Below are positions 20,613-26,372 of a stretch of DNA of 64,000 nt, piece by piece. The position numbers were made by a program, and so were the translations under genes. Each line of letters begins with the position of its first letter. Within the stretch, counting starts at the first letter, position 1. Source of the stretch: Deltaproteobacteria bacterium (lineage in GTDB: Bacteria; Desulfobacterota; Desulfobacteria; Desulfobacterales; Desulfatibacillaceae); contig JACRLG010000002.1 in the NCBI GenBank assembly GCA_016235345.1, positions 1 to 64,000 on the forward strand, read 5' to 3'. The notes beneath the pieces are model-generated. The model had not been told where the DNA came from. It was given only the letters and a program-made list of their open reading frames with translations, and made no database searches.

Positions 20613-21182
20613 TCACAGGTAGTCCCGTAAACCGGCCTCCTCGAATATTGCGCGCAGCTTTGTGATGCTCTCGTAGATCACCGCGCGGGAAACGCCCGTA
20701 TCGCGGGCGATTTCGGCGACAGTCTCGGTCTTGAGCCGCCTGCACAGTTCGCGGAGTTTGGGCGGGAGCCGGGCCATGACCTTGTGAATGTCGATGAACA
20801 GGTCGTGGCGTTCGGTAACGGGACGGGCGAGTTTGCCGGTCCGCACCAGGTACTCTTCGAGGGCTATGAGGCCGCCTTCCTCGTCCTCCAGGTGATCGTC
20901 GAGCGAGCAAAAACAGATGCGGAAGTCCCGCATGCCTGCCTTGCGCGCCAGGATGATGTCCGCGATTTTGTGCGCCACCACGCGGGCGATGAAGGTGCGC
21001 GCGCCGGCACGGTCCGGGTCGTACTTGGGCATGCGCTGGATCAGGTCCAGGAGCATTTCCTGCTCCAGGTCGTCGCGATCCGACGGGGTGAAACCCGCCC
21101 TGCCGACCAGTTGCCGCGCCTTGTACTTGATGAGGTTGAGTGCATACCCGTCGAGAGCATCGAAACGATTGTCGGAACCCAT
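20613..21182 (-). CDS. phage-encoded sigma70-family-like factor
   Basis: 189 aa from MGSDNRFDAL with GAGG 6 bases upstream; the open frame upstream is GC-rich and not convincing. Residues 30-80 match sigma region 2 (DRDDLEQEMLLDLIQRMPKYDPDR... FIARVVAHKIADIILARK), and about 138-185 match region 4 with its HTH (LPPKLRELCRRL, TVAEIARDTGVSRAVIYESI). Region 3 is absent, so it is of the short ECF-like kind. It would direct RNA polymerase to special promoters; the shared CGACAG/CCGG-TANNTA sites in this element are obvious candidates. Confidence 0.82.
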   Translation of the reverse strand: MGSDNRFDALDGYALNLIKYKARQLVGRAGFTPSDRDDLEQEMLLDLIQRMPKYDPDRAGARTFIARVVAHKIADIILARKAGMRDFRICFCSLDDHLEDEEGGLIALEEYLVRTGKLARPVTERHDLFIDIHKVMARLPPKLRELCRRLKTETVAEIARDTGVSRAVIYESITKLRAIFEEAGLRDYL

Positions 21183-21360: not shown

Positions 21361-21684
21361 TCAGGCGGCGTCCTCCTCGAAGCTCATTTTGAAGGGGAGT
21401 CCGTGTTTGACCTCCAGGGAGAGGATGGTCCCGCTACCCAGGGCCTCGATTTGGGCGAACAGGTCGCGCACCTCTTTCTTGAGTGTGAAATCCTGCTTGG
21501 CGGCCTCGGGACGCGGGCCGTTCTCGGAGCAGAATTTCACTTCCCTTACGACGCGGGGCCTTGGTTCCAGAACCGGCTCGCCGTCACGGACGATAAGCCC
21601 CTCGATGCAGCCGAAGTTGAGGCGCTGCATCAGGCCGATGAACTGCTGTTTCTGTTGGGTGAGGTTGCTTTTGGATGTGGTCAT
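21361..21684 (-). CDS. conserved-type small phage/element protein (107 aa)
   Basis: Start at MTTSKSNLTQQ, preceded by a GGAGG site. The sequence (QQFIGLMQRLNFGCIEGLIVRDGEPVLEPRPRVVREVKF, then E-N-G-P-R-P-E) has the look of a small protein common in elements with serine recombinases, but no function is known to me. It lies between the lysogeny-operon terminator and the sigma-like gene. Confidence 0.7.
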   Translation of the reverse strand: MTTSKSNLTQQKQQFIGLMQRLNFGCIEGLIVRDGEPVLEPRPRVVREVKFCSENGPRPEAAKQDFTLKKEVRDLFAQIEALGSGTILSLEVKHGLPFKMSFEEDAA

Positions 21685-21751
21685 TGTTCTGCCTCCTGAC
21701 TTGGGGTGATGTCGTGGAAGGCAGAATTCCAAACAGCGGTCCTAAAAACGC

Positions 21752-21784
21752 AAAAAAGGCCGCCAGGTTTTTCGCCTGCGGCCT
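21752..21784 (-). terminator. rho-independent terminator of lysogeny operon
   Basis: Stem GGCCGCAGG / CCTGGCGGCC (one bulge) followed on the minus strand by six T. It lies 44 bp after the stop of the 876-aa gene. Confidence 0.85.
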
Positions 21785-21827
21785 CATGGGGAAGGAAATA
21801 TTTTTTAAGAAATGTTTCTTTGGACTG

Positions 21828-24458
21828 CTATTTGGACTTGACTACGTTTTCGGCGAAACGAACGCCTTTTTTCCTACGGAACTCAACATTAACACCGAGG
21901 AATTTTCGAATGTTGGTCAGTTGCCGTTGCATGCGGCCTGGGTCTCCCGAAGCTGGAAAATACTCATCTTCCTTCCAAGCGCACGCATCCATGAAGGTTT
22001 TATGGCGAACCCAACCATAACCGATCTGGTCGAAGAGTATTTCGATGATCTTGGAGCTGTGGGTTTCCGTCCTGGAATAGAAGCGGCCTTTGTCCTCACC
22101 GTTCACGAACCAATGGACCTCGTCGCCGACTTCCTTACGTTCTATCACGAACCTGCCTTCTTCTGTCGTTGCGGTTTCAGGGGAAGGTTCGGGAGCGGGT
22201 TTCTGGACTACCTGCTTGTGGCTATCTGCAGAATTGGCTCTTTTGGCCATGGCATCTACTTCGGCCAATTTCTTATTCCAAGTGCTTTTAATGATTGCAT
22301 CATATTCGCTGATCTTTGCTGTGGCAAAATCAATGAATGTGCTCTCTTCTTGAGTGACTTCATAAATCTTTGTGCCGATAGATAGTTGTGTTCTCTCAAG
22401 CCAAAGGTCTACATTCTGAATACGCTGACAGATATCCTCTCCACCGATATCAAATTCATCCTGGTCCCATTGCATCAAAGCATCAATAAGGTCACTAATG
22501 ATTATAAAATTGCTTTCTTTATCAACAACTTCAGACATCGAAAAGCCATCAAAGCAAATCCGGAGCCTTGCTTGTATATTTATGAATAATCCTGCGATAG
22601 GATAAGGATTCAAAAATGCCACATGCTCAGTTCTGTTTATTAATGCTGTTCTACATAGATTCCAATATGTTTTGAGCATCTGAAAGTAGCGTCGCGGTTC
22701 AATAAAAGTTTGATCTCCAATTGGTGCCGGGAAACGACAATCGTTGATTTTTAACTGGATTATTTGATTTGCAATATTTTGAACCGGTTGGTTTGCTTCA
22801 GACATACAGTTTTTGATTAATGTACACATCATCATATTGATTTTATTTCTATCTTCACCTTGGTTTGTCGCGTCTGGGTGATTCAATAACATAACTGAAT
22901 AAAATATTGAAAGTTGTTCAACGGAGGGAAAATCGTCTATTTCCGGCTTAACATACAACTCATCTGCAATCTTTTTTAACAGCGGCTCAATTTTTAAAAT
23001 GGATTCAATATGCTGGACCAATGCATTATGAAGAAGCATTGCCTCATTATTATCTATAGCTTTTGTAAAGTAATATCGAATTCTAAAAAGATCCCGGAGG
23101 CTCATGCACGCAGTTACAGCAGTGGAAAGATTTGATCTGAACAACGGGCTACATTCCGGTCTATCCTCCTCAGAGGAATTTTTCATTTGCCATAATGATT
23201 GAGCTATTTCTTTGCCTTGCTTCAAAGCATTCAGAATTCTTCCGCTTTCCCATGGTGGGATCACTGGCATATCATCCTCAGAAAAACTTAAAAGCGCCAT
23301 TTCCCTGCATCGGGTTTCGATGCTGTATTCGCACACTTCCATCGAGGTCTCGATTATTGCGCACGGCACCGACGCGGTCTGTGGGCCTGCCCCACAGAAG
23401 ACAACTTCTGGATAGCAATCGATACCGTTGAGTTTAAGTGTAGCAACCGGCTTCACGGCAGAGTATGAGGCAAGCACCGGGAATTTCGATAATGCCTCGG
23501 TAATCAAGCAGGCCGGACATTTCCTATCAGCCGCTGACAACTCTGGAAGATATGAAAACGCCTCGTGAAGTTGCTTCTGGGCGGTGTTCCAATCCTTTGG
23601 TTGACCCTGGAATCCTGCATCATCCTGCAAGCAACCAGAAATCTTGCAGCAATGGAGATTGCAAAAGGACATACAAATCTCCTCAAGACATTTCCAGGCC
23701 CACCTTGCTGCTTGTTTGCGATTTTGGCCGGTCCTCGTCTCTACATCGAAGTGCGTTATCGAGATTTCGCAAGCTTGTGGGTTGGAATCCTGTTCATCGG
23801 GCGATTCAAGTAATGCATCAATAGCTGCCTTTTTCGCTTTGATCCTACCATGGGCGTTGAATGAAAAAATTTCCTTCATTGGAAAAAAATAAGCTTTGTG
23901 TTGACGAAGAGAATTTTCTGTATGCAGAGATAAGTGGCGGCGTGTCGGTGCCAGAAGAATAACTGGTTGATTATGCTGTAGAAATAAAAGATTGGCCACC
24001 TCTGAAAAGTTTGCGCTATCCTCCTGAAATGACAGATAAGCGGGAAATCGTTTGCCATCACGACAAACGAAATCCCCAAGGCGCCAAGTGTGGCTGCAAC
24101 CGTCAACCTTGCTTCCGCGGTGTTCGATTCCCAAGGCCGAGCAAACCTCCGTATTGAACCTGCCGTGATCGATTTTGTATATGAGCAGGTCCTGCGCGGA
24201 AAGTCGAACAGGCTCCGCCTCCCGCTCCTGGCAGACCGCCACGAGTTCATCGGGTGAATGCTCGACGACCTTCCTGGGGCAACCGAGTCCGCAAGCCGTC
24301 GGGCAGTCCACCGCCGAGGCGTGATCGCGGGTCAACCGGAAAAAGCGGCTCTTGAAAGCCTCGTACCTGGGCCAGGCACCGAGACGCAGGTTCCAATCGA
24401 ATAGTGCCGCCGCTTCGCCCGGGAGGTCTTCCAGCACATCCCATATCGGATCATCCAT
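21828..24458 (-). CDS. unrecognised 876-aa protein, Cys-rich N-terminus, possible C-terminal winged helix
   Basis: Start ATG overlaps the stop of the 388-aa gene by 8 bp; upstream in-frame ATGs lie inside that gene. Residues 50-78 hold C52-x3-C56-x3-C60-P-R-K-V-V and C76, a likely zinc site, followed by a helical region that may bind DNA. A second Cys/His-rich patch lies at about 275-300 and R-K-C-P-A-C near 325. The last about 80 residues (KIIEILFDQIGYGWVRHKTFMDACAW... FRRKKGVRFAENV) could be a winged helix. Codons from about residue 130 onward are much AT-richer than the first 130, so the gene looks chimeric. No catalytic motif is evident. Apparently cotranscribed with the prophage repressor; defence or exclusion role is inference. 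Confidence 0.75.
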   Translation of the reverse strand: MDDPIWDVLEDLPGEAAALFDWNLRLGAWPRYEAFKSRFFRLTRDHASAVDCPTACGLGCPRKVVEHSPDELVAVCQEREAEPVRLSAQDLLIYKIDHGRFNTEVCSALGIEHRGSKVDGCSHTWRLGDFVCRDGKRFPAYLSFQEDSANFSEVANLLFLQHNQPVILLAPTRRHLSLHTENSLRQHKAYFFPMKEIFSFNAHGRIKAKKAAIDALLESPDEQDSNPQACEISITHFDVETRTGQNRKQAARWAWKCLEEICMSFCNLHCCKISGCLQDDAGFQGQPKDWNTAQKQLHEAFSYLPELSAADRKCPACLITEALSKFPVLASYSAVKPVATLKLNGIDCYPEVVFCGAGPQTASVPCAIIETSMEVCEYSIETRCREMALLSFSEDDMPVIPPWESGRILNALKQGKEIAQSLWQMKNSSEEDRPECSPLFRSNLSTAVTACMSLRDLFRIRYYFTKAIDNNEAMLLHNALVQHIESILKIEPLLKKIADELYVKPEIDDFPSVEQLSIFYSVMLLNHPDATNQGEDRNKINMMMCTLIKNCMSEANQPVQNIANQIIQLKINDCRFPAPIGDQTFIEPRRYFQMLKTYWNLCRTALINRTEHVAFLNPYPIAGLFINIQARLRICFDGFSMSEVVDKESNFIIISDLIDALMQWDQDEFDIGGEDICQRIQNVDLWLERTQLSIGTKIYEVTQEESTFIDFATAKISEYDAIIKSTWNKKLAEVDAMAKRANSADSHKQVVQKPAPEPSPETATTEEGRFVIERKEVGDEVHWFVNGEDKGRFYSRTETHSSKIIEILFDQIGYGWVRHKTFMDACAWKEDEYFPASGDPGRMQRQLTNIRKFLGVNVEFRRKKGVRFAENVVKSK

Positions 24459-25617
24459 GCCGCCCGTTCCCATTGCCTGCGATGAAGCCCCTGAGTCCCA
24501 GCCATTTTTCAATGATCTCTCCGTCGTCGTCCCGCTTGAATTGCGCGCGGTTCCCGGAACTGAGGGTGATGGTCCGAGGCGTCTTGGAGTCCGCGAACTT
24601 GATGAGGAATTTCGCTCTCGTGAGTTTGCCGCCCGCCGGAAAGGTACGCTCGCGTTCCCGGAGAGACGCGAAAAAATCTTCCGATCTTCTGATGTCGTAA
24701 TCCTTCTGTGTACCGCCGTAAAAAATCTGAACCTCCTTCAATTTGACGGACTCGATTCCTTCGATGTCCTCGCATAGCAACGAGTCCTCACCGGTCCGCC
24801 GGAGCGGTTCGAGATCGAACCTGCTGCGCCGGTCGAAAAACTCGGAATCCCCGAAAACGTGGAGGCCGAACTTGGCGCGGTACAGTTCCCTTTCGCCCTT
24901 GGTCTCGGCGTTGATCCTGATTTCGCCGATGGAGGGGTTGTAGACCACGACGTCGTACCTTTCGGGCCGGAAATACTGACTGGCGGACTCGCCCTTGTCG
25001 ATCACCGATTCGCGGGTGTAGGGCTTGCCGTGCCTGACGATGAACATGACATAATCCGCCCTCGGGACCACATGGACCTTCGTGTATTTCCCGCGGCGCT
25101 TTTTGGCGAACCACTCGTCGAGATCCGCTCCCAGTGCGGCGAGGGTCTCTTCCGTCGGCTGCACGAAGGGAGGAACCGGGTCCGCTCCCGTCTTGAAGTA
25201 CTCGAAGGTCTTTCGTGACCAAAGCCGCTGCTCCGCATGGACCTTTTCTATGACCTCGGGCGCCTTGTTCCAGACCTGCACGGCGAGGTCTGCGAACGCC
25301 GCGTCCTCTCCGATTTCCACGTCCAGTTCGGAACCGGTGATCGCTTCCTGGATGGCGTCGAAGCCTTCCGGGGTCGAAATCTCGTTCACGTAGAACAGTG
25401 CCTCGGCCAGGTCCGGGGGAGTCGAAGAATCCGGAGTCAACAGGATGTGACCCAGTTCGCCGTAGTTCAGACCGTCCTCCGCGAGCGCGGGAGGGAGTTC
25501 CACGCCCCTGGTCTTGAAATAGGCTTCGTGAGGGGCGAGAAAGGCGAGGAGGTGTCTCCTGCCGATCCTTCTCAGCACCTCAGGCTTCGAAAAGCGTCGC
25601 ACGTTCAAAGTCGCCAT
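24451..25617 (-). CDS. unrecognised 388-aa protein, partner of 876-aa protein
   Basis: ATG with AGGAG 7 bases upstream, beginning 42 bp after the repressor stop. No known family. The first about 30 residues (MATLNVRRFSKPEVLRRIG) look helical and basic; the centre (RGKYTKVHVVPRADYVMFIVRHGKPYTRES, then YDVVVYNPSIGEIRINAETKGEREL) is rich in beta strands; the C-terminus is basic. GC content is that of the phage. The 8-bp overlap with the next gene indicates a fixed stoichiometric pair. Function unknown. Confidence 0.75.
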   Translation of the reverse strand: MATLNVRRFSKPEVLRRIGRRHLLAFLAPHEAYFKTRGVELPPALAEDGLNYGELGHILLTPDSSTPPDLAEALFYVNEISTPEGFDAIQEAITGSELDVEIGEDAAFADLAVQVWNKAPEVIEKVHAEQRLWSRKTFEYFKTGADPVPPFVQPTEETLAALGADLDEWFAKKRRGKYTKVHVVPRADYVMFIVRHGKPYTRESVIDKGESASQYFRPERYDVVVYNPSIGEIRINAETKGERELYRAKFGLHVFGDSEFFDRRSRFDLEPLRRTGEDSLLCEDIEGIESVKLKEVQIFYGGTQKDYDIRRSEDFFASLRERERTFPAGGKLTRAKFLIKFADSKTPRTITLSSGNRAQFKRDDDGEIIEKWLGLRGFIAGNGNGRHG

Positions 25618-25659
25618 CGGTCACTCCTGTCGTTTCCTGTGTTCAGTTGCCGCCCGTCT

Positions 25660-26286
25660 TCATCCTTTCCTTTTCCACCCTACGACCTTGCCCAGAACCA
25701 GCAGATCGTCCTCCGGCTTTATTTGGATCGGCTTCATGCCTGGATTTTCGGGCGCAAGCTCGATCAGCTCATCCTTAATTTTTAACCGCTTCACCGTGGC
25801 TTCGCCGTTCACGAGCGCCACGATGATGTCCCCGTTCTCGGCGATGGGCTGCCTGCGCACGATGATGAGATCACCGTCGCCGATCCCGGCGCCGATCATG
25901 CTTTCGCCCGAGGTCTGCAACGCGAAATACTTGCCTGACCTTATCGTGGACGCTTCAACGAGCACCTCGCCGATGATGTTCTCCTCGGCCAGAATGGGTA
26001 GCCCGGCGGCCACGACTCCCACCACAGGCACCGACACCAATGCCGCGACCATTTCCCTGGGCCGCCGGGCAATGCTGAGTCCCCGGGCCTTGTTTCCTTC
26101 GCGCTTGAGATATCCCTTGCGGACAAGCTGGTTCACCCGGTCGTGGGCGCTGGCGTGGCTTATGCCAAACGTTTCGCTCAACTCCTTGATGGTGGGCGGA
26201 AAGCCCCTTGAATCCACACACCTACATATTGCTTCCAAGGTCTCCCTCTGCAGGGGCGATATACTCTCGACCTTCGTTTTGCCCAT
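25660..26286 (-). CDS. LexA/S24-type prophage repressor
   Basis: 208 aa. N-terminal winged helix (residues 1-70; FPPTIKELSETFGISHASAHDRVNQLVRKGYL) and C-terminal S24 autoprotease: cleavage site A94-G95, Ser129 in S-G-E-S-M and Lys166 in A-T-V-K-R. The spacings (35 and 37 residues) equal those of E. coli LexA, so RecA-stimulated self-cleavage should work. It could be a second host LexA, but its place in the prophage with an operator in its own promoter argues for the lysogeny repressor, giving SOS-inducible excision. Confidence 0.9.
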   Translation of the reverse strand: MGKTKVESISPLQRETLEAICRCVDSRGFPPTIKELSETFGISHASAHDRVNQLVRKGYLKREGNKARGLSIARRPREMVAALVSVPVVGVVAAGLPILAEENIIGEVLVEASTIRSGKYFALQTSGESMIGAGIGDGDLIIVRRQPIAENGDIIVALVNGEATVKRLKIKDELIELAPENPGMKPIQIKPEDDLLVLGKVVGWKRKG

Positions 26287-26344
26287 GGTCTCTCCCGTTC
26301 TCCATAAAAGACGAAAAGGCCCTTACGGACCGTGATAACCTAAT

Positions 26345-26372
26345 TCTATAAACCTGATGTACATCAGGTCAA
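26345..26372 (-). promoter_or_regulatory. repressor promoter with 18-bp palindromic operator
   Basis: Minus strand: -35 TTGACC (26372-26367), 16-bp spacer, -10 TATAGA (26350-26345). The perfect palindrome ACCTGATGTACATCAGGT (26352-26369) covers the spacer and part of the -35, so the bound repressor would block its own promoter and lie about 25 bp from the rightward promoter E. Confidence 0.75.

What the first reader, a model, noticed from the sequence alone, without database searches (positions are those of the whole stretch)
21752..26372. Repressor-linked pair of unknown proteins (388 and 876 aa) that looks like a lysogen-expressed exclusion or defence system
Leftward from the autoregulated repressor promoter come the repressor, 42 bp, the 388-aa gene, an 8-bp overlap, the 876-aa gene and a clear terminator. 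Genes cotranscribed with a prophage repressor are typically expressed in the lysogen and often protect it against other phages (known for lambdoid and other temperate phages). Neither protein has a family I recognise; the 876-aa one has a Cys4-like site and a possible C-terminal winged helix.
Basis: partly seen in the sequence, partly recalled or inferred. Interest (0 to 1): 0.82.

Follow-up and report, generated by a model that had tools for sequence, protein, structure and literature searches.

The report
Repressor-linked, swappable prophage gene cassette
Behind the repressor gene of a bacterial prophage sits a pair of genes whose first protein is predicted to fold like the DNA-clamping proteins RdgC and RexA, in a slot where related prophages carry different genes, which suggests a Rex-like system that protects the lysogen or tunes its switch.

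Summary
The anatomy is as described: LexA-like repressor, 42 bp, 388 aa, 8-bp overlap, 876 aa, terminator. Neither protein hits Pfam, NCBIfam or PADLOC. Relatives (83 loci, some near-identical) show a coupled two-gene unit; 60 of 83 lie beside serine-recombinase/DUF2924 genes. The AlphaFold model of the 388-aa protein (pLDDT 88) matches RdgC (Z 11.8) and kinetochore CENP-L/N proteins (Z 8-9.6). Lambda RexA, the exclusion protein made from the cI transcript, is published as having this fold, so the order repressor, RdgC-fold protein, partner, terminator resembles cI-rexA-rexB. But the partner is not a membrane protein. The 876-aa version is a chimera: its AT-rich middle is a separate gene elsewhere. 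The slot is exchangeable: of 80 loci picked by a neighbouring gene, 49 carry exactly one of seven occupant classes (31 unassigned), among them QatC-like proteins; one is empty; one keeps a 388 stub before a QatC-like cassette; a sister prophage shares 89% and 97% DNA identity on either side of a replaced stretch. This favours accessory, immunity-type cargo over a core phage function. Lysogen expression and defence are not shown; the promoter looks self-repressed, and a related repressor is adjacent in 19 of 76 loci.

The parts
26343..26372 (-). Promoter-like site of the repressor unit (TTGACC-18-TAGAAT)
   Evidence: 10 of 12 matches; consensus match only
26353..26368 (.). Putative operator, perfect 16-bp palindrome between -35 and -10
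   Evidence: single copy in window; single exact 14-base copy in own genome; 14 of 27 upstream stretches, control 0 of 27
25660..26286 (-). LexA/S24-type repressor, 208 aa
   Evidence: TIGR00498 171 bits, cut-off 111
24451..25617 (-). 388-aa protein; residues ~130-387 model as RdgC fold, residues ~1-130 an extra helical part
21828..24458 (-). Gene 2, 876-aa chimeric partner
23775..24458 (-). Gene 2 conserved N-terminal part (aa 1-228): Cys cluster C52/C56/C60/C76 and weak PD-(D/E)XK-like core
   Evidence: model is of relative L003
22194..23774 (-). AT-rich insert (aa 229-755); a separate gene in other prophages (L005, L105, L106, L157, L194)
21831..22193 (-). Gene 2 C-terminal part (aa 756-876), possible winged helix; no Pfam match and no relative in the loci searched
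   Evidence: winged helix only by analogy with the C-terminus of relative L003
21752..21785 (-). Intrinsic terminator after gene 2 (GC hairpin + T6)
21641..24069 (.). Segment without DNA similarity to sister prophage L002 (89% identity upstream, 97% downstream)
21361..21732 (-). Small conserved gene bounding the slot on the early-gene side
20613..21182 (-). Sigma-70-like protein used as independent marker of this prophage type

Best explanation
An exchangeable, repressor-linked prophage cassette that works like lambda's rex region without being RexAB. The 388-aa protein is predicted to be an RdgC/RexA-fold DNA-embracing protein. Gene 2 is its translationally coupled partner: a Cys-cluster/PD-(D/E)XK-like core and a swappable C-terminal DNA-binding domain; in this prophage an extra module has been fused into it. 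Made from the repressor's self-regulated, DNA-damage-responsive transcript, the pair would sit on DNA, recognise the DNA or replication intermediates of incoming phages, and through gene 2 block them or abort the infected cell. Shown here: anatomy, family, predicted fold of the first protein, chimerism, slot exchange. Inferred: co-transcription, DNA binding, complex formation, trigger, effect.
For: Model of the 388 protein matches RdgC over residues 130-387 (VIA Z 11.8 and 11.3; Foldseek E 7.9e-5) and phage RdgC proteins in BFVD. RexA is published as sharing the RdgC fold and as made from the cI promoter (PMC11077077); the annotated lambda region shows cI, rexA and rexB in line. The slot varies: 49 of 80 sigma-selected loci carry exactly one of seven occupant classes (19 388-type, 15 distant 388-type, 8 QatC-like, 3, 2, 1, 1), none two at the thresholds used, 31 unassigned. 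Empty slot in L190 behind an S24/LexA repressor; 33-codon 388 stub ahead of a QatC-like cassette in L165. Breakpoints with flanks 67-97% identical in DNA in five pairs of prophages. QatC match E 2.6e-53 in PADLOC and 6e-61 in NCBIfam, below its curated cut-off. Terminator-like hairpins after gene 2 in 26 of 74 loci against 0 of 74 internal controls.
Against: No known defence or exclusion family matches either protein. No profile similarity to RdgC or RexA. Neither protein was found in the 50,697 phage or 72,556 plasmid records searched, and no copy was shown to lie in a defence island outside a prophage; 23 of 83 loci, short contigs among them, show neither recombinase nor DUF2924 and are undecided. 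A related repressor is adjacent in only 19 of 76 loci with room; a sigma-like gene follows within 3.5 kb in 50 of 58, which also suits an early-gene role. Gene 2's fold matches are weak (Z at most 7.1), no acidic or lysine column is invariant in the canonical set, and some gene 2 proteins lack the cysteines. The QatC-like cassettes have no demonstrated Qat partner set.
Confidence: 0.5

Rival explanations
1. Lysogeny-switch module: the RdgC-fold protein modulates RecA-stimulated cleavage or DNA binding of the adjacent LexA-type repressor, and gene 2's DNA-binding C-terminus regulates the early (sigma-like) genes, so the pair sets when the prophage induces.
For: E. coli RdgC is reported to reduce RecA-dependent LexA cleavage and RexA to bias the CI/Cro switch (PMC11077077); phage 434 Hex, made from the repressor mRNA, blocks RecA-stimulated cleavage of the 434 and P22 repressors (abstract of PMC3564112). 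The repressor is LexA-like with a putative operator in its own promoter, so the unit should be SOS-responsive. Several occupants end in HTH or winged-helix domains, some shared between otherwise different occupants.
Against: The slot can be empty (L190) or filled by QatC-like proteins, so this function would have to be dispensable. No second copy of the operator in the window, so no sign that the early genes share control. Hex does not protect lambda repressor or LexA.
Confidence: 0.3
2. Core phage DNA metabolism: an RdgC-like protein and partner act in early replication or recombination of the phage itself.
For: RdgC fold; in most loci with room the pair precedes the sigma-like gene (50 of 58), and in the window and several relatives this leads into RecB-like, AAA_24, DUF669, ERCC4 and helicase genes; RdgC proteins occur in many phages.
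Against: Replaced or absent in sister prophages whose early genes stay similar; a terminator-like hairpin follows gene 2 in the window, its sister L002 and 24 other loci of 74.
Confidence: 0.12
3. Selfish stability unit: a toxin/antitoxin- or partition-like pair that keeps the prophage in the lineage (the CENP-L/N resemblance reflecting DNA tethering).
For: Structural match to kinetochore DNA-binding subunits (Z 8.0-9.6); coupled two-gene format; a small gene that I recall as ParB-like is a frequent neighbour, though Pfam does not name it.
Against: The kinetochore match is shared by RdgC and RexA and is thus not specific; no toxin or antitoxin family hit.
Confidence: 0.06

Closest known systems
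Lambda RexA/RexB (and RexAB of P. putida prophage P1)
   Same: In lambda two genes directly behind the CI repressor on the same strand (in P. putida two further genes intervene); first protein with the RdgC-type fold (published for RexA; predicted here)
   Different: 388 aa with an extra N-terminal helical part against 279 aa for RexA; no profile similarity; partner is not a four-helix membrane protein but a larger protein with a Cys cluster and a DNA-binding-type C-terminus
RdgC (PF04381), E. coli and phage copies
   Same: Predicted fold over residues 130-387 of the 388 protein (Z 11.8)
   Different: No sequence-profile match; N-terminal extension; coupled partner gene; the host has its own separate RdgC relative
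CENP-N/CENP-L, yeast Chl4/Iml3
   Same: Same fold class in the 388 model (Z 8.0-9.6), with CENP-N/Chl4 matches starting at model residue 66-69, inside the helical part
   Different: Eukaryotic kinetochore; no functional link
Prophage antiviral hotspots (P2/P4-type, PMC9122126)
   Same: Constant flanks, variable content, at least one occupant class related to a defence family
   Different: Here the slot lies, in the window, behind a LexA-like repressor, and breakpoints can fall inside a gene between its N-terminal module and its C-terminal DNA-binding module
QatC of the Qat anti-phage system
   Same: QatC-like proteins occupy the same slot in sister prophages
   Different: Not in the window; in L167 it carries a C-terminal domain shared with some gene 2 proteins; of L167 only the two slot proteins were scanned, and no other Qat component matched

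Membership tests
RexAB exclusion system | Two genes downstream of a CI-type repressor on the same strand | tested here: met
RexAB exclusion system | RexA homology (fold or sequence) | tested here: inconclusive
   388 model matches RdgC, which is published as RexA's fold relative; hhalign with lambda RexA 0.2%; RexA's own structure is not among the rows shown
RexAB exclusion system | RexB: small membrane protein with four predicted transmembrane helices | tested here: not met
   highest 19-residue hydropathy of gene 2 is 1.17 against 2.39 for RexB; 876 aa
RexAB exclusion system | Excludes superinfecting phage | not testable with these tools
   needs plating
RdgC (PF04381) | Match to the family by sequence | tested here: not met
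   (hhalign 0.6%)
RdgC (PF04381) | RdgC fold | tested here: met
   Z 11.8, 223 residues, rmsd 5.8; predicted model only
RdgC (PF04381) | DNA ring dimer and RecA inhibition | not testable with these tools
   biochemistry needed
PD-(D/E)XK nuclease (gene 2) | Fold | tested here: inconclusive
   Can2 Z 7.1, EndoMS 6.4, FokI 5.4, all below 8; model is of relative L003, not of the window protein
PD-(D/E)XK nuclease (gene 2) | Conserved acidic and lysine catalytic residues | tested here: not met
   no D, E or K among invariant or nearly invariant columns of 32 canonical sequences
OmpR-type winged helix (gene 2 C-terminus) | Fold | tested here: inconclusive
   BaeR Z 6.6, VanR 5.7 for L003's C-terminus; the window's own C-terminus is a different type, was not modelled and has no Pfam match
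Prophage defence hotspot | Constant flanks with alternative contents | tested here: met
Prophage defence hotspot | Contents are proven defence systems | tested here: inconclusive
   QatC-like in 8 of 80 loci, below the NCBIfam cut-off; no convincing defence match for the other occupants scanned
Qat system | QatC in the window pair | tested here: not met

The most novel reading that the evidence does not exclude
A plug-in immunity platform of temperate phages: a slot behind the LexA-type repressor in which RdgC/RexA/CENP-N-fold DNA clamps pair with effectors made of interchangeable N-terminal modules and interchangeable C-terminal DNA-binding tethers, with QatC-like enzymes as alternative plug-ins; the window's 876-aa protein is one effector caught with a second module inserted.
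Probability: 0.3. Interest if true: 0.8.

Novelty: new variant of a known kind. Interest (0 to 1): 0.64.

Why it matters
It would extend the Rex principle (an RdgC-fold DNA-binding protein on the repressor's transcript) from lambda, a P. putida prophage and actinobacteriophages to a group of prophages of Deltaproteobacteria, Alphaproteobacteria and others, found here mainly in metagenomes, with a non-membrane partner instead of RexB. The slot gives a way to look for immunity genes by position: several occupant pairs have no known family. It also makes the open question about Rex testable, exclusion or switch control, because sister prophages with different or no occupants are natural controls.

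Tried and rejected
Family libraries with single proteins gave nothing convincing for the pair: no row at E up to 1 in Pfam, PADLOC and NCBIfam, three weak PHROG rows for the 388 protein (best E 0.013). All 48 members of the 388 alignment in PHROGs gave one weak hit of one member to an unnamed family; 11 distant members gave none in Pfam. PDB sequence profiles gave only weak rows for the 388 protein (best E 0.02) and none for gene 2. My first reading from the neighbourhood table, that the pair is a core early-gene component, was dropped after the reciprocal search by the sigma-like gene. Alignments A5 and A6 did not align L005's copy of the insert, so the 876-aa protein itself was not folded; the second model is of the canonical relative in L003. 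A relative search with the insert alone found no confirmed viral contig; its 327-aa relatives came from the slot survey. For gene 2 Foldseek gave no E of 0.001 or below. RexA's own structure did not appear among the rows shown for the 388 model, which says nothing either way. In the slot survey 31 of 80 loci stayed unassigned: many have little sequence upstream of the sigma-like gene, but L162, L181, L185, L203, L223, L224, L227, L228 and L231 have 4.5 kb or more; I looked at ORFs of L162, L203, L223, L224 and L227 and could not assign them. L190 is one of the 31 and is the empty slot. Alignment A8 had a row in the wrong frame and was replaced by A9; A11 was made and not used. The sigma row was misregistered and is not used. 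Eight literature searches listed no paper whose title or abstract start describes this pair or slot; only four papers were opened, in part.
Full report
What is there. Reading leftward: a LexA-type repressor, 42 bp, a 388-aa ORF, an 8-bp overlap, an 876-aa ORF, and a hairpin with six T. The promoter-like site carries a perfect palindrome between its -35 and -10 boxes. Of 27 distinct upstream stretches of related repressors (own copy included) 14 hold CTGA-N6-TCAG, 10 of them 76-81 bases before the start, against 0 of 27 stretches further upstream. The window has one copy (0.73 expected) and the exact 14-mer occurs once in the own genome. The repressor therefore probably represses its own promoter, so the transcript need not be strong in the lysogen and may rise after DNA damage. 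The surroundings are a prophage: portal, terminase, primase, helicase, ERCC4-type nuclease, PD-(D/E)XK nuclease, AAA_24 and DUF669 on one side, DUF2924 and a resolvase-type serine recombinase on the other. The window begins at the contig start, so the far end of the prophage is not seen.

The family. The 388 protein had 13 relatives among genome contigs, 70 among viral contigs with a profile (9 with the single sequence), and 13 of 389 genomes of its class, the own genome included. None was found among the phage and plasmid records searched (gene 2). In 92 of 102 loci with a 388 match gene 2 was found too, on the same strand and normally overlapping (this set contains the window, re-fetched copies and near-identical contigs; the 10 without include incomplete or broken copies). 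Of 83 relative loci 60 show a recombinase or DUF2924 gene. A sigma-like gene follows on the same strand within 3.5 kb in 50 of 58 loci with room; a repressor related to the window's lies directly upstream in 19 of 76 with room.

The 388 protein. AlphaFold2 with 48 sequences gives pLDDT 88. Foldseek's best rows are CENP-N and RdgC (E 1.5e-5 to 1.4e-4) and phage RdgC-type proteins; VIA-align puts RdgC first (Z 11.8, 223 residues, rmsd 5.8) and Chl4, CENP-L, CENP-N and Iml3 next (8.0-9.6). Adams et al. 2024 (PMC11077077; abstract, introduction, two result sections, discussion and passages read) report that lambda RexA has RdgC's fold with domain similarity to IML3 and CHL4, binds DNA non-specifically, is made from the cI promoter, and both excludes T4rII (with RexB) and biases the CI/Cro switch. 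The lambda record shows cI, rexA and rexB in line. Sequence profiles do not link the 388 family to RdgC or RexA, so this is a structural resemblance.

Gene 2. Its first ~216 residues are conserved. Most relatives are about 300-440 aa, with a C-terminal domain of several types, some of them shared with other slot proteins. The model of a canonical relative (L003, pLDDT 85) gives weak matches to PD-(D/E)XK folds (Can2 7.1, EndoMS 6.4, FokI 5.4) and, for the C-terminus, to OmpR-type winged helices (BaeR 6.6); no catalytic residues are conserved and some gene 2 proteins lack the cysteines. In the window the middle (aa 229-755) is AT-rich. It matches a separate third gene behind gene 2 in L005 (36% over 543 columns), in G234 (39%) and in G354 (L106), and a stand-alone 327-aa gene directly behind an S24 repressor in L194 and in the same place in L157. 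The 876-aa protein is thus a fusion of a gene 2 with another slot gene. Unlike RexB it has no strongly hydrophobic stretch.

The slot is exchangeable. Choosing loci by the neighbouring sigma-like gene, not by the pair (best 80 of 82 kept), 49 of 80 carry exactly one occupant class and none two at the thresholds used: 388-type 19, distant 388-type 15 (homologous by hhalign 99%, E 3e-18), QatC-like 8, and others 3, 2, 1, 1; 31 are unassigned, many too short. L190 has an S24/LexA repressor followed directly by the small gene, an empty slot; L165 keeps the first 33 codons of a 388 gene before a QatC-like cassette. The distant 388 proteins have a gene 2-like partner (hhalign 96.5%). The window and L002 are 89% identical in DNA from the promoter to gene 2 codon 130, without detectable DNA similarity for about 2.4 kb of the window, then 97% identical; in protein, gene 2 stays recognisably related up to about residue 212. 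L008 and L167 are 95% identical from just behind the cassette; L157/L158 (84-85%) and L033/L213 (67-72%) resume similarity inside the last slot gene, at its C-terminal DNA-binding part; L165/L082 flank the replaced stretch at 72% and 86%. QatC, named by PADLOC and NCBIfam as part of the Qat anti-phage system, matches at E 2.6e-53 and 6e-61 but below NCBIfam's cut-off. Terminator-like hairpins close the unit in 26 of 74 loci, 0 of 74 in internal controls.

Interpretation. A gene set that sister prophages exchange or lack while keeping their early genes is accessory. Its place behind the repressor, its RexA/RdgC-type fold and the QatC-like alternatives make an immunity function the best guess, working like Rex but not a RexAB member, since the membrane partner is missing. 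The main rival is control of the repressor or the lytic switch, for which RexA, RdgC and Hex (PMC3564112, abstract read; Hex does not protect LexA) give precedents, and to which the self-repressed, LexA-type promoter is well suited. Both could be true at once, as discussed for RexA. A recent P. putida RexAB system (PMC12894663, abstract and one result section read) and prophage hotspots (PMC9122126, abstract read) are the nearest published parallels I saw.

Noticed in passing
G000:C28:227546-228004: The host genome carries a separate RdgC-family protein (PF04381, 38.7 bits), on another contig than the prophage.
   Followed up: no
L165:1422-4526: First 33 codons of a 388 gene ending in a stop, followed by a 262-aa gene and a 700-aa QatC-like gene: a fossil of cassette replacement.
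   Followed up: partly
L167:7203-9305: QatC-like protein whose sequence also matches gene 2 proteins of L002, L006-L009, L035 and others, by inspection in the shared C-terminal domain.
   Followed up: partly
L160:4330-6733; L213:3916-5728; L174:2489-4018: Further slot occupants; the L160 and L174 proteins without any Pfam match, the L213 proteins with SAP (weak) and Rrf2 matches.
   Followed up: partly
L003:10250-10837 (also L018, L019): A different third gene of about 195 aa behind gene 2, no family hit in Pfam or NCBIfam.
   Followed up: no
L013:439-3387: 982-aa TIR/NB-ARC/TPR protein near a Magnetococcales copy of the element.
   Followed up: no
   Followed up: no
L006, L007, L008, L009: 388 proteins identical in 386-388 of 388 residues in contigs labelled as four different phyla or families; probably one mobile element mis-binned in metagenomes.
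   Followed up: partly
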